64,000 nucleotides of DNA. Origin: an uncultured SAR86 cluster bacterium. Lineage in GTDB: Bacteria; Pseudomonadota; Gammaproteobacteria; Magnimaribacterales; AG-339-G14. Shown here in pieces: positions 52,970-64,000 of the stretch; position 1 is the first letter of the stretch; each line of letters begins with the position of its first letter. The notes beneath the pieces are model-generated. The model had not been told where the DNA came from. It searched no databases and saw only the letters and a program-made list of their open reading frames with translations. A program made the position numbers and the translations under genes. The stretch is taken from positions 24,601 to 88,600 of the forward strand of contig CABZIF010000006.1 of NCBI GenBank assembly GCA_902525735.1. Direction: 5' to 3'.

Positions 52970-55711
52970 TTAATGTGCTTCGCCCCAATTTTCAGCAATG
53001 CCGCTCTCAACTTCCAAAGGCACGCTCAGTTTGGCTGCCTTCGACATAATTTCTGAAATTTTTGTTGCCACCGAATCAGCCTCCTTTGTGGCCACTTCTA
53101 AAATAACTTCATCATGCACCTGCAAAATCATTTTTGCTTTTATCTTTTCTTTTTCCAACCATTCTTGAATATTGATCATGGCAATCTTCATAATATCTGC
53201 TGCCGTACCTTGCATCGGGGCATTAATTGCTGCTCTTTCTGCCGCTTGTCTCGTTCTACCACTATGAATGCCTGGTAAATATAGCCTGCGTCCAAATAAG
53301 GTTTCGACAAAGCCTTTTTCTCGAGCGATTTCTTTGGTTTGTTCCATATACAGCTTCACACCTGGATATTTAGCAAAGTAAGAGTCGATATATTCTTGTG
53401 CCATATTCCTAGGGATGCCCAAAGCTTTGCCCAAGCCAAAAGCAGACATGCCGTAGATAAGACCAAAGTTAATGGCTTTGGCGCTGCGTCTGTCTTCTTC
53501 AGAGGCGGCCTCCCCAGGATTTCCAAAGACTTCTGCAGCTGTCGCTGAGTGAATGTCTTCTCCATTTTGAAATGCCGAAATCATTCCTTTGTCTTTAGAA
53601 AGATGAGCCATAATTCTTAATTCAATTTGCGAGTAATCAATTGATAAAAGTTTTTGTCCCTTAGGCGCCACGAAAGCATTACGAATCATTCGTCCCTCTT
53701 CGGTTTTAATGGGAATATTTTGCAAGTTTGGATCTGCTGAAGATAATCTTCCGGTTGTTGTAACAGCTTGTAGATAAGAAGTGTGTATGCGGCCTGTCTT
53801 TGGTGAAATCTGCTCCGGTAAACTATCGGTATAAGTATTTTTAAGTTTTGCTAGTGTTCTATGTTCCAACAAAATTTTGGGAAGTTCATAGTCTCTTGCT
53901 AGGTCTTGCAGTACCGATTCATCAGTAGATGGCTGACCGCCTGGCGTTTTCTTCATCACCGGCATGTTCATTTCCTCAAAAAATATTTCTCGTAGATCTT
54001 TGGTAGATGCCAAATTGAATTCTTTACCAGCTTCACTAAAAGCTTTTTCTTCCAAACCGCTGATGCGTTGTCCTAAATTGTTGGATTGAATTCTCAGAAC
54101 TTCTGGATCGATCAAAGCCCCATTTTGCTCAACCTCTGATAAGACTTTTATCATCGGCAGATCAATTTCAGACAGCACTTTTTCTAACTCGGGTTTTTGT
54201 GAAAGCTTTTCTTTTAATAATTCGTAACAACGAAAAGTAATGTCAGCATCTTCTGCAGCATAATGACTGCCACTCTCTAAATTCACTTGGTTAAATGTGA
54301 TTTGTTTGACACCTTTGCCGGCAACTTCTTCATAAGTAGTCGTCTCATAATTTAAATAAAACTTAGCCATCGCATCTAAATTATGTCGAGTTGCAGTTGA
54401 ATCAAGGACATAGGACATCAGCATGCTGTCGCTGCCAATATTATTTAATTCCAGACCGTGTTGAGCCAGAACATTACGATCAAACTTTATGTGTTGACCA
54501 ACCACTGGTACTTTTTCTAATAGAGGTTTTAATTTTTCGATCACCAGTTTTTTTGAAAGTTGTTTGGGGGCACCTTCATAGTCGTGCTGGATAGGAATAT
54601 AAGCCGCTTCGCCAGCTTTGGCTGAAACAGAAATTCCCACTAGATTAGCCACAGTAAAATCAAGCCCATCGGTTTCGGTATCGAGGGCTAGTATTTTTGC
54701 TTTGGATAATTTTTTTATCAAAGCATCAAGATCTTTCTCCGTTAAAATACAATGATATTTCGAATCGACAGCTTTTGGTGGAACATGCTCTTCTGTTGAT
54801 GGTGCGACGTATTCTTTTTTTGTTGTCTTGGTTTTCTCTTTTGTAGTAGCACTTTTAATTAGAGTTTTAAATTCTAAGTCAGTGAAAAGCTTGTGTAATT
54901 GATCGGTATCTCTTTTGCCAACTTTCAAATCATTGATGCCAAAATCCAATTCCACATCTTTTTTTATGGTTGTGAGTTGCTGAGAAAGTTTCAATTGTTC
55001 AATGCCTTCACGCAGATATTCACCAACCTTGCCTGAAATTTCTTCAGCATTGGCAATGATATTCTCAACGGTTTCGTATTTAGTCAGCCAGTTCACCGCT
55101 GTTTTAGGGCCGACTTTTTGAACGCCTGGAATATTATCTGAAGTATCGCCAACCAGTGCTAAATAGTCGATGATTTGATTTGGTTTGACACCAAACTTCT
55201 TCATAACGCCCGCTTCATCCAAAACTTCGTTGCTCATGGTATTAACCAAACGAATATTTTTAGTAACCAATTGGGCAAGATCTTTATCGCCCGTCGAAAC
55301 CACCGTCTTGATACCTTCTGCTTCTGCTTGGGTAGCCAATGTACCAATCACATCATCCGCCTCGACATTATCAACAACAAAAATCTTTAGGCCCAAAGCT
55401 TCGCAGATGTCATAAATAGGTTGGATTTGTGGACGCAAATCATCTGGCATCGGCGGTCGGTTGGCTTTGTACTGATCGTACATATCGTGTCGGAAGGTGC
55501 TGCCTTTTGCATCAAAGATCATGCCCACTGGGCTATTTGGGTGATCTTCTAAAATTCGCATCACCATAGTGGTGACGCCTCTGACTGCGCCTGTTGGTTG
55601 ACCGGTCGAAGTCGAAAGCGGTGGCAAAGCATGATAAGCACGATATACATAAGATGAACCATCCACCAAAATGATGGAGTCGTTGTCTGAAGTGCTTTCT
55701 GGTTTGACCAT
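52970..55711 (-). CDS. polA: DNA polymerase I
   Basis: ILVDGSSYVYRAYHALPPL; FRHDMYDQYKANRPPMPDDL; LSIDYSQIELRIMAHLSKD; INFGLIYGMSAFGL; LQVHDEVILEV; 913 aa. Confidence 0.98.
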   Translation of the reverse strand: MVKPESTSDNDSIILVDGSSYVYRAYHALPPLSTSTGQPTGAVRGVTTMVMRILEDHPNSPVGMIFDAKGSTFRHDMYDQYKANRPPMPDDLRPQIQPIYDICEALGLKIFVVDNVEADDVIGTLATQAEAEGIKTVVSTGDKDLAQLVTKNIRLVNTMSNEVLDEAGVMKKFGVKPNQIIDYLALVGDTSDNIPGVQKVGPKTAVNWLTKYETVENIIANAEEISGKVGEYLREGIEQLKLSQQLTTIKKDVELDFGINDLKVGKRDTDQLHKLFTDLEFKTLIKSATTKEKTKTTKKEYVAPSTEEHVPPKAVDSKYHCILTEKDLDALIKKLSKAKILALDTETDGLDFTVANLVGISVSAKAGEAAYIPIQHDYEGAPKQLSKKLVIEKLKPLLEKVPVVGQHIKFDRNVLAQHGLELNNIGSDSMLMSYVLDSTATRHNLDAMAKFYLNYETTTYEEVAGKGVKQITFNQVNLESGSHYAAEDADITFRCYELLKEKLSQKPELEKVLSEIDLPMIKVLSEVEQNGALIDPEVLRIQSNNLGQRISGLEEKAFSEAGKEFNLASTKDLREIFFEEMNMPVMKKTPGGQPSTDESVLQDLARDYELPKILLEHRTLAKLKNTYTDSLPEQISPKTGRIHTSYLQAVTTTGRLSSADPNLQNIPIKTEEGRMIRNAFVAPKGQKLLSIDYSQIELRIMAHLSKDKGMISAFQNGEDIHSATAAEVFGNPGEAASEEDRRSAKAINFGLIYGMSAFGLGKALGIPRNMAQEYIDSYFAKYPGVKLYMEQTKEIAREKGFVETLFGRRLYLPGIHSGRTRQAAERAAINAPMQGTAADIMKIAMINIQEWLEKEKIKAKMILQVHDEVILEVATKEADSVATKISEIMSKAAKLSVPLEVESGIAENWGEAH

Positions 55712-56441: not shown

Positions 56442-56696
56442 TTATCTAGGTATTAAGGTTTGGTTAGCTGAAAAATTATCAGAATTTTTAAACGCCGTTC
56501 TTACCATGTATTTTCTAACCACAGACACAATAGTCAAAACCAAAGTCTGAATTGCAGAAATTAGAAAAGCATTGCTCATGCCCATATTCATCATCAAAGC
56601 CAAAGTTCCGAAAGAAGTAATCCAGGCAATTGGCATCGCAATTGAAGTGTCTATCATAGACTCACGAAGTGTTTTTTTATCTAATTTTTTAATCAT
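56442..56696 (-). CDS. Small membrane protein (two predicted TMs)
   Basis: SMIDTSIAMPIAWITSFGTLALMMNMGMSNAFLISAIQTLVLTIVSVVRKYMVRTAF. Confidence 0.65.
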   Translation of the reverse strand: MIKKLDKKTLRESMIDTSIAMPIAWITSFGTLALMMNMGMSNAFLISAIQTLVLTIVSVVRKYMVRTAFKNSDNFSANQTLIPR

Positions 56697-56733
56697 ATTT
56701 ATTTTTAAAAAGCTGCGTATTATAGTTATATGA

Positions 56734-56752
56734 AGCGACAGATTATGTCGCT
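56734..56752. promoter_or_regulatory. Perfect inverted repeat, candidate operator upstream of the WYL gene
   Basis: AGCGACA-GATTA-TGTCGCT just 3' of a TATTATAGTTATAT -10-like stretch, 35 bp upstream of the ATG at 56788. Confidence 0.6.
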
Positions 56753-56787
56753 ATGAAAAGATAAAATTTAATAATTAAGAGAGAACT

Positions 56788-57789
56788 ATGAGTAATCCTA
56801 CCTTGAGACAAATATCCATGTTGGAGCTAATTCCTCGAGCACCGAGAAAAACTTATGCCAAGAAATTAAAAGCGCAATTGAGCGATCGAGGATATGACGT
56901 AGACGAACGAACCATACAAAGAGATTTGGTTTCTTTGGAACGAGTTTTGCCATTGATATGTGACGCACGAGACAAACCGTATGGCTGGTCTTGGGCTGAA
57001 ACTGGACTTGGAATTCAAGCACCTGCGATGGATCCCATTGAAGCCCTGACTATGTCTTTGGCCCATCAATATTTAGAACCTTTAATGCCTTCGGCCAGCT
57101 TCAATAGAATCAATATTTTCTTTAAAAGAGCAAACGAAACATTAAAAGAGAGTAGTCCAAAGTTAATCAATCGTTGGCGTAATAGGGTGCGAGTCTTGCC
57201 AGAGCTTTTGAGATTTAAAAAACCCAAATTAAACAAAGATGTTGAACAAGCTCTTTATAAAGCTGCATTTGAAGGCCTGCAAATAAAGGCTTTGTACCGT
57301 AAGAGAGGAGAATCTCAATCAAGCTTGAGATTGATTCATCCCATGGGTTTGGTTATGAAAGGCAGTATTAATTACTTAATTTGCATGATGGATGAAGATC
57401 CTGATCAACCTCGTTATCTGCCACTGCATAGATTTGAAAGGGTAGAAATTTTAGATTTGCCTGTGCACGAACCTAAAAACTTTAATTTAGACGAATTCAC
57501 GCATACCAATAATTTGAGTTACGAATATTCAAAAAACCTTTATACCTTCAAAGCGCTTTTTGATTACACAGCGGCTGCACATTTGATTGAAACTCCTTTA
57601 AATAGTTCTCAGAAAACGAAACGGTTAGAAGATGGACGATTGCTAGTTTCTGCGCGCATGACTGACACTCTGCAATTTGAGCAATGGCTCATGAGTTTTG
57701 GGTCGGACGTTGAAGTTCTTGCTCCTGGCAAGTTAAGAAATAAATTTAAAATACTGGCAAAAGAGTTAATAAAAAAATATGATGATTAG
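56788..57789 (+). CDS. WYL-domain transcriptional regulator with N-terminal wHTH
   Basis: RQISMLELIPRAPRKTYAKKLKAQLSDRGYDVDERTIQRDLVSLERVLPL HTH; central domain IKALYRKRGESQSSLRLIHPMGLVMKGSINYLICMMDEDPDQPRYLPLHRFERVEIL; C-terminal WCX-like part. Confidence 0.9.
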   Translation: MSNPTLRQISMLELIPRAPRKTYAKKLKAQLSDRGYDVDERTIQRDLVSLERVLPLICDARDKPYGWSWAETGLGIQAPAMDPIEALTMSLAHQYLEPLMPSASFNRINIFFKRANETLKESSPKLINRWRNRVRVLPELLRFKKPKLNKDVEQALYKAAFEGLQIKALYRKRGESQSSLRLIHPMGLVMKGSINYLICMMDEDPDQPRYLPLHRFERVEILDLPVHEPKNFNLDEFTHTNNLSYEYSKNLYTFKALFDYTAAAHLIETPLNSSQKTKRLEDGRLLVSARMTDTLQFEQWLMSFGSDVEVLAPGKLRNKFKILAKELIKKYDD

Positions 57790-57792
57790 AGG

Positions 57793-58695
57793 ATGACCAT
57801 AGATAATTTTTTAATTCTTTTTGTTGTTTTTTTATTAGCAGTAATAATTGTATTTCTTTTTTTAATTTTTTTTGATTTTAAAAATTCTAATAAAAATTCC
57901 ATCGACAAAGATCATAACTTTAATAATAAAATAGATTTACTTTCGAGCGAAATGTCTGAGATAGAAAGTAAACTAATCTCAGTAACTACCCCAATTAACG
58001 AGCTAAATAGATTTCTAGGTGGTAGCGTCTCCGCTGGTCGTTTGGGCGAGTGGAATCTTGAGTCCATAGTAAAAGATATAATGCCTTCTTCAAGTTATGA
58101 ATTTCAAAAAATAATAAATCCAGAAACAACTGAACAGGTAGATTGTGCAATCTTTAGTGCCGATGGTCTAATTATTCCAATAGACTCAAAACTTTATTCG
58201 GGACAGTTTAAAAACTATCAAGCTACTTCTAAAAAATCTGAGCAAGAAAAAATATTAAAAGGCTTAAGAACTTCGATTTTAAAAGATGCGGATGAAATAT
58301 CTCAAAAATATATCAGACAAAATACTACAACTAATTACGCAATTCTCTATATAGCTTCTGAAAAAATGAATGATTTAGTCGACTCAATCGAAGATCTTCG
58401 TCAAGAATGTCTTTCTGAAAAAAAGGTTCTTATTCAAGGTCCTAATACCATGGCTGCTTTTTTAGACACAATTAAAATAGGCCACCATTATTTAAATTTG
58501 AATGAGACAGCTGAAAAAGTTGCCGAAATTGTTAGAAAAGTTAATAAGCAATTTAAAGCTTTTGATGAAAGCACAATTAATGTCAAGAAGAAGTTGGAGG
58601 CGTCAGTAAAAGAAGTCGATGAATTGCAAACCCGTATAAATGTTCTAGGAAGAGAATTAGATCGAGGAGCAGAAGAAATAAAAGCCAATAAATAA
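57793..58695 (+). CDS. RmuC-family protein (membrane-anchored PD-(D/E)XK-type nuclease-like)
   Basis: N-terminal TM; GGSVSAGRLGEWNLESIVKDIMPSSSYEFQ; EQVDCAIFSADGLIIPIDSKLYSGQF (D...DSK); NYAILYIASEKMNDLV; IQGPNTMAAFLDTIKIGHHYLNLNETAEKVAEIVRKV. Confidence 0.88.
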   Translation: MTIDNFLILFVVFLLAVIIVFLFLIFFDFKNSNKNSIDKDHNFNNKIDLLSSEMSEIESKLISVTTPINELNRFLGGSVSAGRLGEWNLESIVKDIMPSSSYEFQKIINPETTEQVDCAIFSADGLIIPIDSKLYSGQFKNYQATSKKSEQEKILKGLRTSILKDADEISQKYIRQNTTTNYAILYIASEKMNDLVDSIEDLRQECLSEKKVLIQGPNTMAAFLDTIKIGHHYLNLNETAEKVAEIVRKVNKQFKAFDESTINVKKKLEASVKEVDELQTRINVLGRELDRGAEEIKANK

Positions 58696-58754: not shown

Positions 58755-60002
58755 TTGAAAGAAAAAAAGAAATTTATAGACTTATTTGCTGGTTGTGGAG
58801 GTTTATCTTTAGGATTAGAAGAAGCTGGGTTTCAGCCAGTATACGTAAACGAATTAAACAGAGATGCGTTAGAAACTTACTTATTAAATAGAGATGAAAT
58901 ATATCCTTATTTAAGAGATAACAAATTTCATTCTCGAGATATAAAAAAATGTATTAATGAAGAGTTTTTTAAAAATTTAAAATTTAACTTAGTTGCAAAG
59001 TTTGGGTCGGAAAAAATTGATCTAGTTTGTGGCGGGCCTCCTTGCCAAGGCTTCTCCAGACTAGGAATAAGAAGATCTTATTCTGTAGACAAAGAACAGC
59101 TTCCTTCAAATCTTTTATATCAAGATATGTCTTTTTTTATTCATAAAATGCAACCAAAAATTTTTTTATTTGAAAATGTAGAAGGCCTATTGACTGCAAA
59201 ATGGAACCAGTCTGGTTTGAAGGGAGAAATTTTTAAAGATGTTTTAAAAACTTTTGAAAACCTAAAGGGTTATGAAGTTAAATATAAATTGATTTACTCC
59301 AAAGACTATGGAGTTCCTCAAAATAGGCCAAGAGTATTCATTATTGGATTCAAGTCAGAAATTATAAAAAACAAAATTGAAGAAACTGATGCTGTTAAAG
59401 CTGGCTTTTTTCCTCAAGAAACAAGAGATTATCCTCACTTAAAAAACGTACTTTCTGACTTAATAGACAATAATTTTAGTTATGGACAAAAAACAGAATT
59501 TTATCCTAATAATGCCAAAACAGAATGGCAAAAAAAAATAAGAACAAAAAAAAATGGTTCTATCTTTTTAAAGAACGATGCTCTTTCAGAGCATGAATAT
59601 AGTAATCATAGCCTTAAGACTCGGGCTAAATTTAATTCATTAATTTTGAATAAAGGAGATATTTCAGAAAATTTTAAAACAAAAAAATTTGCTCAAAGAG
59701 TATTGCCAAAAAAGTGGGGCAGCAAAGGGCCTAATATAACTATTACGTCTATGCCAGATGATTTTATTCATTATGAGCAAGCTAGAGCTCCCTCTGTCAG
59801 AGAATGTGCAAGAATTCAAACTTTTCCAGATTGGTATGAATTCTCTGGGAAACGAACTACTGGAGGAATAAGAAGAGCCGGAAATCCAAAAAAAAATAAC
59901 TTTGAAAGAGAGGTTCCAAAATTCACTCAAATTGGTAATGCCGTTCCAGTAAAACTAGCTTTTGAGATTGGTAAGCACTTCCTAAAAGTTTTAGAGATCT
60001 AA
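58755..60002 (+). CDS. C5-cytosine DNA methyltransferase (DrmMII candidate; TTG start)
   Basis: FIDLFAGCGGLSLGLEEAGFQPVYVNELNRDALETY; DLVCGGPPCQGFSRLG; FLFENVEGLL; YGVPQNRPRVFIIGF; ARAPSVRECARIQTFPDWYEF; TQIGNAVPVKLA. Confidence 0.95.
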   Translation: MKEKKKFIDLFAGCGGLSLGLEEAGFQPVYVNELNRDALETYLLNRDEIYPYLRDNKFHSRDIKKCINEEFFKNLKFNLVAKFGSEKIDLVCGGPPCQGFSRLGIRRSYSVDKEQLPSNLLYQDMSFFIHKMQPKIFLFENVEGLLTAKWNQSGLKGEIFKDVLKTFENLKGYEVKYKLIYSKDYGVPQNRPRVFIIGFKSEIIKNKIEETDAVKAGFFPQETRDYPHLKNVLSDLIDNNFSYGQKTEFYPNNAKTEWQKKIRTKKNGSIFLKNDALSEHEYSNHSLKTRAKFNSLILNKGDISENFKTKKFAQRVLPKKWGSKGPNITITSMPDDFIHYEQARAPSVRECARIQTFPDWYEFSGKRTTGGIRRAGNPKKNNFEREVPKFTQIGNAVPVKLAFEIGKHFLKVLEI

Positions 60003-61940
60003 AAAGTATCCTTGGGCATCTGTTTCTGAACCAATTAAAGAATTTCTATCCAAAAGAATATTTTTGGGAAAAGTGCAACAAGCTAAATCAGGAACCATTA
60101 AACAAGCATGGCATGCTGCGAGGTTCATTCCGCCAAGTCCTTGTCCATCTGATTCAGAACATATAGGATCATTCGAGCAAAATCTCGAGTTTTCAATAGC
60201 ATTTTTCAATATTCCCTCAAACAATTCTGGCTTGATCGTTCTTACTAAGCCTCCAAGAGAGCCTGAAGAATCGGCAGAAGCTGTATAAATTAAAACACCT
60301 GCCATTTCTTTTTCTTTACTAAAATAAATCCTTTCCAATAATTCCGTAATACCGTATCCACATTCCATTGCTAGCTGCGTCATGAGCGCATGAGAAAAGG
60401 AGTGAATTAATACAAATCCTGCATCTAAAGATTCTGAGTCTTTAAGTTTTTCATACAAAAAAGAGTTCTTAGCATTATTTTTCAGGTTTTTTGTTATTTC
60501 GGAAATTTTTGAATTATTATTTAGCCAATTTTTAATTTTTTCATAACCAAAGTTAATGAAGATACCTTCTCCAGTAACTTCGCTGCAAGGTAAAAAATCG
60601 ACATTTTCTCTGGCGGGATTGAATTTTTCTTCTGGAGAAATTTTTCTAATGCTTTCTGCTTGACGTTCAAAGCCTATTAGAGCTGTAGCAGTTTTAACTT
60701 TTTTTATCTGGTGGAGACTTAAAAAGTACTTTTCTAAATCTAAATTTTTATATGAATCTAAAGCTATTGAATCAGACTTAAAATCTTCGTCATCTACACT
60801 GTTTTGTATCAAAGTTTGATATTCTTTGAATAAAAAATCTCGGTCTAATTCTTCTTGCTCTATAACCTCTTGGTCATCTTCTGTAAGTCTATTTATTTCC
60901 TCAATTATTAAATTTTTTGCCTCATCAATTTCTAAATCATATGACCCATGAAGATTCCCCATATCGAGGACTATTTCTATATCGCTAATTTCTCTTTCTC
61001 CATCAATAATCTTTTGAACGATATTGATAGTCGATTCATCATCAAGTATTTCATGTCTTACGCTGTAAGGATCAGGAACATAAATAGCACTTTTATGAAT
61101 TGGCAGGTAAATTTTTGATGCTCCTCTTGGCTGAACATCTAATAGTTCTTCGCATTGTTCATTTGGTGCAGTAGGACCCAGCCAAGGTTTTTCTCCTTTG
61201 CAGGAAAATATTTTATTTCCATTTTGATCAATAATTTTTTCTCTTTCTTCAAGCTGGCTTATGCCAGTGAGTGCTTTTGATTTTCCACAAACTTTACAAG
61301 TAATTCTAAGGCTAGAAAAACCTCCTCCCTGCCCATTATCATCAAGATATAAAGAAGGGTTGCTTGGTCCATGATTTTCATCATTTAACATTGCACAATT
61401 TTCATTGCAATTCGTTGCCATTAATTCTGGCCAAGGAATGTCTTGAATGTGTCCTTTTTGACAATAGGCAATAAAACGAACTGGTTCCGTTTTTGAGCCA
61501 TGACGATTTGTACTACTTGTACTACAAGGATTGCCTTTCTTCCAGTTCGGAAGATGGTTGTTATTACACCTTCTATTTCCCGCAGGACTATGTTTCATTA
61601 ATGCATTACAATTCATACAAACTGACCATTTAGGGAAAGTCGTAACTTCAATTTTTCCAGAAATATCATGCAGCGCTTCCTGCATTTGATCGTAAGCTAC
61701 TGGGGGTTCAATGAGTTTATTTATTCTTACCGCATTCACCCCTTCGTAATTTTTTAAAACCTTATTTAAATATTCAACAAACCTAAAATTATTTACTTTT
61801 AATTTTTGAATAGTTCTTGGGTTTAACTGCCATTCATCTACTGTTAGAGTCATTCCTGGAAATTCAACGTAGTCGTAAGTTGCTCCCACTCCAAAAGTTG
61901 TAACAACCTGAGATCTTCTTAAATCGCTTTTAAATGCCAT
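59991..61940 (-). CDS. DUF1998-domain, multi-Cys protein; DISARM DrmB-like
   Basis: Start set at MAFKSDLRRSQVVTTFGVGATYDYVE; Cys clusters CMNCNALM, CQKGH, CKVCGKS; LIHSFSHALMTQLAMECGYG; LGGMNLAACHACLMVPDLACCTFPKNILLDR. Confidence 0.83.
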   Translation of the reverse strand: MAFKSDLRRSQVVTTFGVGATYDYVEFPGMTLTVDEWQLNPRTIQKLKVNNFRFVEYLNKVLKNYEGVNAVRINKLIEPPVAYDQMQEALHDISGKIEVTTFPKWSVCMNCNALMKHSPAGNRRCNNNHLPNWKKGNPCSTSSTNRHGSKTEPVRFIAYCQKGHIQDIPWPELMATNCNENCAMLNDENHGPSNPSLYLDDNGQGGGFSSLRITCKVCGKSKALTGISQLEEREKIIDQNGNKIFSCKGEKPWLGPTAPNEQCEELLDVQPRGASKIYLPIHKSAIYVPDPYSVRHEILDDESTINIVQKIIDGEREISDIEIVLDMGNLHGSYDLEIDEAKNLIIEEINRLTEDDQEVIEQEELDRDFLFKEYQTLIQNSVDDEDFKSDSIALDSYKNLDLEKYFLSLHQIKKVKTATALIGFERQAESIRKISPEEKFNPARENVDFLPCSEVTGEGIFINFGYEKIKNWLNNNSKISEITKNLKNNAKNSFLYEKLKDSESLDAGFVLIHSFSHALMTQLAMECGYGITELLERIYFSKEKEMAGVLIYTASADSSGSLGGLVRTIKPELFEGILKNAIENSRFCSNDPICSESDGQGLGGMNLAACHACLMVPDLACCTFPKNILLDRNSLIGSETDAQGYFLDL

Positions 61941-64000
61941 CGTTTTTATTAACCTCAACATCTAAATCAGAATTTCTCATACTTGTGGGTGCGGAGAATA
62001 CTGCTCCGTCTCCTATTATCGACGATGGATCAAACAAACGAGTATCTGCTTGTCTTCCGCCCATTTTGCCCCATTCTTCAATTTGTCCAAATCTTTTCCA
62101 TCTTTCCTGAATTTCTTCTAACTCTTTCTTAACAGAATCATATTCCTCTGGATCCGACTTTAAAACAGAATCCAAAATCCATTCTTCTGACTTCAAAAAT
62201 CGATCTTCATCTTCGTTTTGGTTAAAAGTTGGTGCATTTATATTTTTTCCAAAACTCAAAACAAGAGAAGCAAAAACAGCGGCAAGCCCTTTTTTTCTAG
62301 CACCAGATGAGAAAGGTGTGACACTTACGGTTTCAACATATTTATATATTGATTGATGATAGTTTTTAAACATTTCATAAACCGATCTATCTTTTGATTT
62401 TCCATGATTGTATATTGCTAAAACTAGACCCGGATGTCTTCTACCAACTCTCGAAGAGGCCTGAATATATTCAGCCGTTGTTTTTGGTTGTCCATGCATC
62501 AACATTAACCCAAGTCTTGGGATATCTACACCGACAGAAATCATATTAGTTGCCATCAAAATATCAATTCCCTTGGTCGGATCAGTTGGACTTCTAAAAG
62601 TTTGGGTCCATGGAACATTAAGAAGATCCAAAATTGACTCAATCTCATCCTGACTTCTTCTGCCAGTTAATTCTCTTATTTTCTTGATTTTTCTAGAAAA
62701 TCTTACTAATTTTCCGTCTGTTATAGATCCAAATTTTCCTTTATTTATTGTCTTAGCATTCCGTCTAAGGGCAGACTCCATAGCTTGAACTTGATTGCTC
62801 ATATATGCTAACTCTCTTTTGCTATTAAAATACCAAACTAGAGTTCCATATGGATCAAAAGACATTTCTTTCTTCGTCGGTGAAGGATACAAAGTTGCTG
62901 ACACAGGTAATTCTTTAGTAAAAGGTTCAGAAAGAACGATTTCAAACTGCTTGAGTTCCTCTGTTTCAATCTCCTGATCTATTTCCTTAATATCTTCAAT
63001 TGTAAATTCTAAGACTTCTTTTCCATCGTAAAATGTGAAACTACTTCCAGGTTTTAAAGAAGACCCCGGAGATACAAATATGCTCGTATCACCTCGATTT
63101 ACTTCATTTGTTGTAATTGGCAAAAAGTCTTGGGGCGATTGTAATAGAGGTGTTGCTGCAGTTACAGACGATTCAATCATTGAGCCTTTAGCTGAACCAA
63201 AAAAACCCATATACATTCGACCTGGCTCTTCATCAATTTCTCGTTCTTTAGCAAAGAAAGAATCTTCCCAATCTATTACCTGAGGAGGAAATATATTGGA
63301 AGATCTACCTCGATATAGAGATTTCGATTGAGCATCCGAGAAAGTTAAAGTTGCTGAAGCACCAATAATCTTTGGTGTTTTTTTATCAAAGGACATCAAT
63401 TTTATTAATACATTTTCAAAAAGACCGACCATTGTGCCCAAGGGACCAGATATTAAATGTAATTCATCTTGGATAACCAGTTCAGGCGGGTCAAAGTCGT
63501 TATTTTTAATTAAATTTATCGCTTCTTCTTTCCAACTTAATTTGGCAAAGTTATCCACTGTACCTAAAAGTAAAGAAGGCTTTTCTTCAAAAATCGCTTC
63601 TTCCCAGAGATAAACAGGTAGCTTTTGATGAAAGAAACAATTTGCATCTGAACACCTAATTATCGCTTTTCCAGTTGTTCCGGGTTTGGGAATGTACCCA
63701 TAGTCTAATGGATTTGAAATTTTTGATTTACACCATGGGCACTGATGTAAAATAAATTTATAGTTTCCATTTCTATCTTTCCCAGTAGGATCTCTTCCTC
63801 TAATAATATCTAATGCTCTTTTATGAGTATTTGGACTCCCCGCAGCACCAACCCACAAACCAAGAGAAATTTCATCTTCACCAAGCTCTAAATCCAAAAT
63901 TCCTTCTTTCCTAATAAATTCTAATGCGCAAATTAAAGCTGCCGATCTTCTAAATTGATCTGATGTCAAAAGCCTTAAGGTATATCGCATAATGGCAGAA
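61930..64000 (-). CDS. Superfamily 2 helicase, DISARM DrmA-like (N-terminus outside the window)
   Basis: Frame open to the window end; LVIQDELHLISGPLGTMVGLFE; IIGASATL; ILMATNMISVGVDIPRLGLMLMHGQPKTTAEYIQASSRVGRRHPGLVLAIYNHGKSKDRSVYE; overlaps the drmB-like start by 11 bp. Confidence 0.85.
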   Translation of the reverse strand, partial: SAIMRYTLRLLTSDQFRRSAALICALEFIRKEGILDLELGEDEISLGLWVGAAGSPNTHKRALDIIRGRDPTGKDRNGNYKFILHQCPWCKSKISNPLDYGYIPKPGTTGKAIIRCSDANCFFHQKLPVYLWEEAIFEEKPSLLLGTVDNFAKLSWKEEAINLIKNNDFDPPELVIQDELHLISGPLGTMVGLFENVLIKLMSFDKKTPKIIGASATLTFSDAQSKSLYRGRSSNIFPPQVIDWEDSFFAKEREIDEEPGRMYMGFFGSAKGSMIESSVTAATPLLQSPQDFLPITTNEVNRGDTSIFVSPGSSLKPGSSFTFYDGKEVLEFTIEDIKEIDQEIETEELKQFEIVLSEPFTKELPVSATLYPSPTKKEMSFDPYGTLVWYFNSKRELAYMSNQVQAMESALRRNAKTINKGKFGSITDGKLVRFSRKIKKIRELTGRRSQDEIESILDLLNVPWTQTFRSPTDPTKGIDILMATNMISVGVDIPRLGLMLMHGQPKTTAEYIQASSRVGRRHPGLVLAIYNHGKSKDRSVYEMFKNYHQSIYKYVETVSVTPFSSGARKKGLAAVFASLVLSFGKNINAPTFNQNEDEDRFLKSEEWILDSVLKSDPEEYDSVKKELEEIQERWKRFGQIEEWGKMGGRQADTRLFDPSSIIGDGAVFSAPTSMRNSDLDVEVNKNDGI

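What the first reader, a model, noticed from the sequence alone, without database searches (positions are those of the whole stretch)
57793..58695. RmuC-family nuclease-like protein translationally coupled to a WYL regulator within a defence locus
The start codon lies 4 bp after the WYL stop. The protein has an N-terminal TM helix, a PIDSK (D-x-K) motif like PD-(D/E)XK enzymes, and the conserved IQGPNTMAAFLDTIKIGHHYLNLNETAEKV segment, but is only 300 aa, with a very short coiled-coil relative to typical RmuC. Inference: a membrane-tethered nuclease under WYL control could be an effector acting on incoming DNA.
Basis: partly seen in the sequence, partly recalled or inferred. Interest (0 to 1): 0.65.

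Follow-up and report, generated by a model that had tools for sequence, protein, structure and literature searches.

The report
Housekeeping rmuC inside a switchable defence island
The gene is the marine bacterium's only, ordinary copy of the DNA-maintenance gene rmuC, but in this lineage it sits in a swappable antiviral island under a regulator resembling a known DNA-damage sensor, whose predicted binding site recurs at the promoters of the island.

Summary
In detail: a 300-aa RmuC protein (Pfam 6e-41) lies 3 nt after a WYL gene, beside DISARM genes. This is the only rmuC in the SAR86 genome, and about 295 aa is the normal length in related SAR86 lineages. In relatives without the island rmuC is the second gene of a polA/dsbB-rmuC locus, with no WYL or DISARM gene. 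None of 8 other gammaproteobacterial DISARM loci carries RmuC. Synonymous divergence shows that rmuC and WYL were exchanged as a block with the island (dN/dS 0.05), so the protein is under purifying selection.

The coupling to WYL is real and recurs: ATGA overlaps in five other genomes, close spacing in two more. Upstream of every full-length WYL gene in the family is a palindrome, CGACA-N5-TGTCG. It occurs 3 times in this genome, all at the island: at WYL-rmuC, at a boundary operon, and ahead of a glycosylase-like/drmE operon that probably continues into drmA-drmB. Its core, CGAC-N7-GTCG, is the published site of DriD, an ssDNA-activated WYL activator and this WYL's closest solved relative. 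TATAAT boxes sit 9-11 nt away. Best reading: a core nuclease captured by a DriD-like defence regulon.

The parts
57793..58695 (+). rmuC, 300 aa; N-terminal TM-like helix and RmuC nuclease-like domain; the genome's only rmuC
58177..58191 (+). codons for PIDSK, the D-x-K motif (D131, K133 invariant in 22 aligned sequences)
56788..57789 (+). WYL-WCX transcription regulator; closest solved structures are DriD (7tzv, 7u02, 9pfq, 8tp8)
56734..56752 (.). palindrome AGCGACA-GATTA-TGTCGCT (core CGAC-N7-GTCG), predicted operator of the WYL protein
56762..56767 (+). TAAAAT, predicted -10 of the WYL-rmuC promoter, 11 nt after the box
56719..56724 (-). TATAAT, predicted -10 of the divergent DUF7220 promoter, 11 nt from the box
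56442..56696 (-). DUF7220 gene, divergent from WYL, recurrent beside the WYL gene
58755..60002 (+). C5 cytosine DNA methyltransferase (DrmMII-like), 59 nt after rmuC; 3' end overlaps drmB tail to tail
59991..61961 (-). drmB
   Evidence: NF038324, 404 bits
61930..64000 (-). drmA, 5' part missing at contig end
55765..56238 (+). dsbB, core gene upstream; directly overlaps rmuC in many WYL-less relatives
52970..55711 (-). polA, conserved flank of the locus

Best explanation
This is the resident single-copy core rmuC of a SAR86 bacterium. Its locus (polA, dsbB-rmuC) is a hotspot where defence islands are exchanged by recombination as a block that carries its own WYL gene and rmuC allele. In island-bearing lineages a DUF7220-WYL cassette stands between dsbB and rmuC, so rmuC becomes the translationally coupled second gene of the WYL operon. 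The WYL protein most likely works like DriD. It binds a CGAC-N7-GTCG box centred on the -35 region and, when its WYL domain binds ssDNA made during damage or phage attack, it activates the island promoters: WYL-rmuC (perhaps with the methyltransferase), a boundary operon, and the glycosylase-like-drmE-(drmA-drmB) operon. RmuC would then be a co-induced membrane-tethered nuclease that helps process damaged or foreign DNA. Shown: single copy, synteny, divergent linked alleles, conserved coupling, box conservation, island specificity, -10 spacing. Inferred: that the WYL protein binds the box, activation rather than repression, ssDNA sensing, RmuC catalysis, and the join between contigs C14 and C6.
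For: Only rmuC in the genome. 86 of 101 relatives have one, nearly all exactly one; all eight rmuC-less family members that were checked also gave no dsbB match, which suggests the locus is missing from those assemblies. polA-dsbB-rmuC synteny without WYL: dsbB to rmuC gap of -1 in most. WYL-rmuC gap of -4 in five genomes, +3 here, +7 in G001. WYL beside rmuC only at this locus. In pairs with polA at least 90% identical, rmuC averages 91% between WYL-less genomes but 59% (at most 69%) between WYL+ and WYL-less. rmuC and WYL synonymous sites are near or at saturation (G000 v G001) where polA dS is 0.37; rmuC dN/dS 0.05. Box: 11 of 11 WYL+ family loci, 0 of 29 WYL-less loci. In this genome 3 of 4 CGAC-N7-GTCG sites lie at the island, counting C14. 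Box at WYL genes of other SAR86 families too. TATAAT-like (5/6 or better) 9-11 nt away in 25 of 42 half-sites, against 0-6 at control offsets. Closest PDB match DriD, E 3.5e-9, and DriD consensus ATACGAC(X)7GTCGTAT, site overlapping -35 (PMC12340889). C14 carries two boxes, then the UDG-like gene and drmE.
Against: Only the WYL-WCX part aligns with DriD; the HTH does not. The best-studied defence WYL regulator, BrxR, is a repressor that also uses inverted repeats with 5-bp spacers (PMC9122601). The sites at the boundary operon and before the drmE operon have weaker or oddly placed -10s. The C14-C6 join is by gene order and orientation only, with no sequence overlap. Nothing here tests expression or nuclease activity.
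Confidence: 0.72

Rival explanations
1. rmuC here is a co-opted defence effector like ShdA of Shield: a membrane nuclease acting on incoming DNA, with WYL as its dedicated regulator.
For: Shield ShdA is an RmuC-domain nuclease with an N-terminal TM helix, often accompanied by a WYL/BrxR gene, and about 70 ShdA homologues lie in DISARM-like operons (PMC10270631). Two relatives (G007, G031) carry clearly different RmuC cargo proteins beside SNF2/EcoRII-type or PsyrT genes.
Against: ShdA is about 520 aa and reported only in Pseudomonas; this protein is the single core copy, about 60% identical to core rmuC of WYL-less relatives. RmuC in 0 of 8 class DISARM loci.
Confidence: 0.13
2. Ordinary core rmuC that merely happens to lie next to an inserted island; WYL regulates only itself and the defence genes, and coupling to rmuC has no consequence.
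For: rmuC is downstream-coupled to dsbB in WYL-less genomes, so any upstream insertion would place it in a new operon. Three of 11 WYL+ genomes have broken the tight coupling (G004, G038, G007).
Against: Eight of 11 keep the RmuC gene within 15 nt of the WYL stop, and WYL-linked rmuC alleles are distinct from WYL-less ones.
Confidence: 0.3
3. The WYL protein is a BrxR-type repressor of the island rather than a DriD-type activator.
For: BrxR-family regulators sit in defence islands and bind inverted repeats with 5-bp spacers, repressing (PMC9122601); the palindrome can be written as arms with a 5-bp spacer.
Against: No solved BrxR appears among sequence matches up to E=10, whereas DriD does. 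Half-site CGAC/GTCG with 7-bp spacing equals DriD's. The -10 spacing puts the box on the -35 position, as at DriD-activated promoters.
Confidence: 0.3

Closest known systems
Core RmuC (PF02646; E. coli rmuC)
   Same: RmuC domain, N-terminal TM helix, PxDxK motif, single genomic copy, conserved genomic place
   Different: Shorter (300 aa; E. coli RmuC is longer, from general knowledge); here coupled to a WYL gene
Shield ShdA (Pseudomonas)
   Same: RmuC domain with TM helix; WYL gene often nearby; defence neighbourhood; DISARM association reported
   Different: ShdA is about 520 aa, accessory and reported only in Pseudomonas; ours is the sole core copy
DriD of Caulobacter crescentus
   Same: WYL-WCX domain homology; CGAC-N7-GTCG site; box centred on -35 with -10 at fixed distance; DriD targets include nucleases bapE and recJ (PMC12340889)
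   Different: HTH does not align in the profile search; the sites here are at a defence island; activation untested
BrxR (BREX and other defence islands)
   Same: WYL regulator with N-terminal HTH at a defence island; inverted repeats at more than one promoter of the island
   Different: No detectable sequence match to a solved BrxR; BrxR represses
DISARM class 2
   Same: drmA, drmB, C5 methyltransferase, and a drmE-family gene on contig C14
   Different: Split by an assembly gap; drmC not sought; methyltransferase faces drmB; RmuC is not a DISARM component

Membership tests
RmuC (PF02646) | Match above the curated cut-off over the whole domain | tested here: met
   140.8 bits against cut-off 26, profile 18-282 of 291
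RmuC (PF02646) | PD-(D/E)XK-type nuclease fold and motif | tested here: inconclusive
   Invariant P129, D131, K133; model pLDDT about 90 in the core; top fold matches are mostly PD-(D/E)XK nucleases but weak, best E 0.013
Core (housekeeping) rmuC | One copy per genome at a conserved place | tested here: met
Shield ShdA | Accessory defence gene, about 520 aa, in addition to or apart from core rmuC | tested here: not met
   300 aa, only rmuC in the genome
Shield ShdA | Confers phage resistance | not testable with these tools
   needs a plating assay
DISARM component | Recurs with drmA-drmB in other genomes | tested here: not met
   RmuC in 0 of 8 DISARM loci of the class; two of these lie on short contigs
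DISARM class 2 (for the neighbouring genes) | drmA, drmB, drmMII, drmE (and drmC) | tested here: inconclusive
   drmA, drmB, C5 MTase in window; drmE-family on C14, 34.3 bits, below the curated cut-off 80; drmC not sought
DriD-like WYL activators | WYL-WCX homology | tested here: met
   E 3.5e-9 single, 8.4e-13 profile
DriD-like WYL activators | HTH homology | tested here: inconclusive
   alignment covers residues 156-319 (single) or profile positions 158-324 only
DriD-like WYL activators | CGAC-N7-GTCG site over -35 with -10 downstream | tested here: met
DriD-like WYL activators | Activation by ssDNA | not testable with these tools
   needs binding and reporter assays

The most novel reading that the evidence does not exclude
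A DriD-type ssDNA-sensing WYL activator has been recruited as the master switch of exchangeable antiviral islands in SAR86. Phage-made or damage-made ssDNA turns on DISARM (or whatever cargo is present) together with the cell's own membrane nuclease RmuC, linking a non-SOS DNA-damage response to inducible phage defence.
Probability: 0.35. Interest if true: 0.72.

Novelty: new variant of a known kind. Interest (0 to 1): 0.5.

Why it matters
The best-studied defence-island WYL proteins are repressors whose inducing signal is unclear. A DriD-type box, with its -10 spacing, repeated at the promoters of SAR86 defence islands gives a concrete hypothesis: ssDNA is the alarm signal. It also shows how a housekeeping nuclease gene can be drawn into a defence regulon without losing its core role, and it marks dsbB-rmuC as a defence hotspot in one of the most abundant marine bacterial groups. 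It is also a caution: an rmuC beside DISARM is not by itself a new effector.

Tried and rejected
Short length as a sign of a special RmuC: rejected, about 295 aa is normal in related SAR86 lineages. Second full-length rmuC elsewhere: not found. RmuC as a DISARM component: rejected, 0 of 8. Fast adaptive evolution of WYL-linked rmuC: rejected, synonymous sites are saturated and dN/dS is low, which points to allele exchange. WYL-rmuC as one clade moved between genera: not seen; the WYL tree follows genera and WYL-linked rmuC fall in several places. Loss of rmuC in G002, G003 and others: not supported, dsbB is missing too, so the locus is probably unassembled. A genome-contig scan with DrmB found no relative. 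PDB sequence search with RmuC gave only chance coiled-coil matches. No direct sequence overlap between contigs C14 and C6. SAR86 with DISARM or defence island gave no papers in the library.

Full report
OBSERVATION. The ORF at 57793-58695 is real, 300 aa, and a clear RmuC (PF02646, 6.2e-41). The WYL stop ends at 57789, so 3 nt separate the genes. PIDSK and the quoted conserved segment are present. P129, D131 and K133 are invariant in an alignment of 22 sequences. AlphaFold2 gives an N-terminal helix 4-31, a well-predicted alpha/beta core and a long C-terminal helix (mean pLDDT 77.6). The top fold matches in the PDB are mostly PD-(D/E)XK nucleases (Can2, Card1, SfsA, XPF; class from general knowledge), but they are weak (best E 0.013). 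Neighbours: WYL-WCX 56788-57789, DUF7220 56442-56696 (-), C5 methyltransferase 58755-60002, drmB 59991-61961 (-), drmA 61930-64000 (-), cut by the contig end.

WHAT THE GENE IS. The window belongs to a 1.18-Mb, 92% complete genome. Named relatives show that it is SAR86. It is the only rmuC in that genome. 86 of 101 relatives have rmuC, nearly always one copy. Eight rmuC-less family members were checked for dsbB and none gave a match, so the locus is probably missing from those assemblies. All 80 named rmuC loci fetched encode 289-335 aa, so shortness is the rule in these lineages; one other SAR86 family has longer forms. In the family of the window, rmuC lies in a conserved polA(-) dsbB(+) rmuC(+) setting. 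Where no WYL is present, dsbB and rmuC overlap by one base in most genomes, or are 26-44 nt apart in genus g4; two have an extra gene between them.

THE ISLAND. In 11 family members (G000, G001, G004, G007, G015, G021, G027, G031, G033, G034, G038) a WYL gene, often with a divergent DUF7220 gene, lies on the dsbB side of rmuC, and variable genes lie beyond. The cargo differs: DISARM here; a UvrD/GajB-like helicase in G001; methyltransferase, MzaB-like, Z1 (MzaC) and AIPR genes in G038; a WYL-RmuC-PsyrT-DprA run in G031; a methyltransferase-RmuC-SNF2-EcoRII/HNH run in G007; an AAA/RNase H-like helicase in G015. DrmB is found only in G000 among 101 relatives. In G007 and G031 the RmuC is a different, longer protein (357 and 381 aa) and no core rmuC is found. 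So this hotspot holds core rmuC in most genomes and cargo RmuC in two.

BLOCK EXCHANGE. Among pairs with polA at least 90% identical, rmuC averages 91% between WYL-less genomes and 59% (maximum 69%) between WYL+ and WYL-less genomes. G000 and G006 differ by 4% in PolA, 12% in DsbB and 37% in RmuC. WYL-less rmuC from four genera form a supported group; WYL-linked ones fall outside it in several places, against a polA tree that follows genera. Between G000 and G001, rmuC dS is 2.1 and WYL synonymous sites are saturated, where polA dS is 0.37; rmuC dN/dS is 0.05. This points to exchange of an old, constrained segment, not rapid adaptive change.

COUPLING AND OPERATOR. The WYL-rmuC gap is -4 (ATGA) in G015, G021, G027, G033 and G034, +3 in G000, +7 in G001, and +15 to the cargo RmuC of G031. 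It is broken in G004, G038 and G007. Upstream of WYL in all 11 genomes is a palindrome with core CGACA-N5-TGTCG (window 56734-56752, AGCGACAGATTATGTCGCT). It is absent from 29 WYL-less rmuC loci. Over whole genomes the core occurs 23 times in the 11 WYL+ family members, 21 of these at the island (counting C14 of G000), and in only two other family members, once each. It also lies near WYL genes in G047, G074, G061 and G052, in other SAR86 families, where WYL is not beside rmuC. In the window genome CGAC-N7-GTCG occurs four times: once at WYL, twice on the 7.6-kb contig C14, once elsewhere. In the window it occurs once, where shuffles give 0.08 on average; the recurrence across genomes, not this single count, is the evidence.

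FAR SIDE OF THE ISLAND. C14 carries, in order, two paralogous genes, a relative of which lies next to rmuC in island-free genomes (G006, G008, G011 and others); two small genes (-); a box; two genes (+); a second box; a weak uracil-DNA-glycosylase-like gene; and a DrmE-family gene running off the contig end. The same boundary genes lie at the far end of the G001 and G007 islands (82-99% identical). Orientation fits a continuation into drmA-drmB of the window, but there is no sequence overlap, so the join is inferred.

MECHANISM. The only solved proteins matching this WYL at E below 0.01 are five chains, 7tzv being DriD by PMC12340889 and the others DriD from general knowledge and the same aligned sequence. 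DriD is an ssDNA-activated transcription activator with consensus ATACGAC(X)7GTCGTAT, a site overlapping -35, and targets that include nucleases (PMC12340889). The SAR86 box has the same CGAC-N7-GTCG core. A TATAAT-like hexamer (5/6 or better) lies 9-11 nt beyond the box in 25 of 42 half-sites, against 0-6 in control offsets, which puts the box on -35. These half-sites come from related genomes and are not all independent. In the window both directions have one (56762-56767 toward WYL-rmuC, 56719-56724 toward DUF7220). The best-supported model is therefore a DriD-like switch over the island, with rmuC as a captured core nuclease. Limits: only the WYL-WCX part aligns with DriD; activation, ssDNA sensing and nuclease action are inferred; BrxR-type repression remains a rival (PMC9122601).

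COMPARISON. Shield already shows that RmuC domains can be antiphage nucleases, that WYL genes often accompany them, and that RmuC proteins occur in DISARM-like operons in Pseudomonas (PMC10270631). The present gene fails the test for ShdA, because it is the sole core copy, and the test for a DISARM component. What appears new is the core-gene capture and the DriD-type box across SAR86 defence islands. I found no paper on this in the library, but most subscription papers are not held there.

Noticed in passing
L181 (own genome contig C14), 1677-7569: Probable far side of the same island: unknown small genes, two WYL boxes, a UDG-like gene and a DrmE-family gene cut by the contig end.
   Followed up: partly
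L037 9320-10390 and L059 8953-10095: Divergent longer RmuC proteins (357 and 381 aa) inside methyltransferase-SNF2-EcoRII/HNH and PsyrT-DprA neighbourhoods; the L037 protein matches PADLOC RTasRmuC at 2.7e-24. These are better candidates for co-opted RmuC effectors than the window gene.
   Followed up: partly
L100 (G047), 975, 6990, 9558, 9862, 13124, 13511: Six CGAC-N7-GTCG sites within 15 kb around a WYL gene without rmuC: probably a multi-promoter regulon.
   Followed up: no
L098 and L099, upstream of WYL: Related WYL genes of another SAR86 family are preceded by GCGTC-N7-GACGT, the same spacing with a changed half-site; a possible change of operator specificity.
   Followed up: no
window 56442-56696 (-): DUF7220 gene divergent from WYL in several island-bearing genomes, sharing the box; function unknown.
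   Followed up: partly
L062 1-9611: MZA-like system (methyltransferase, MzaB-like, Z1, AIPR) directly after core rmuC in G038.
   Followed up: partly
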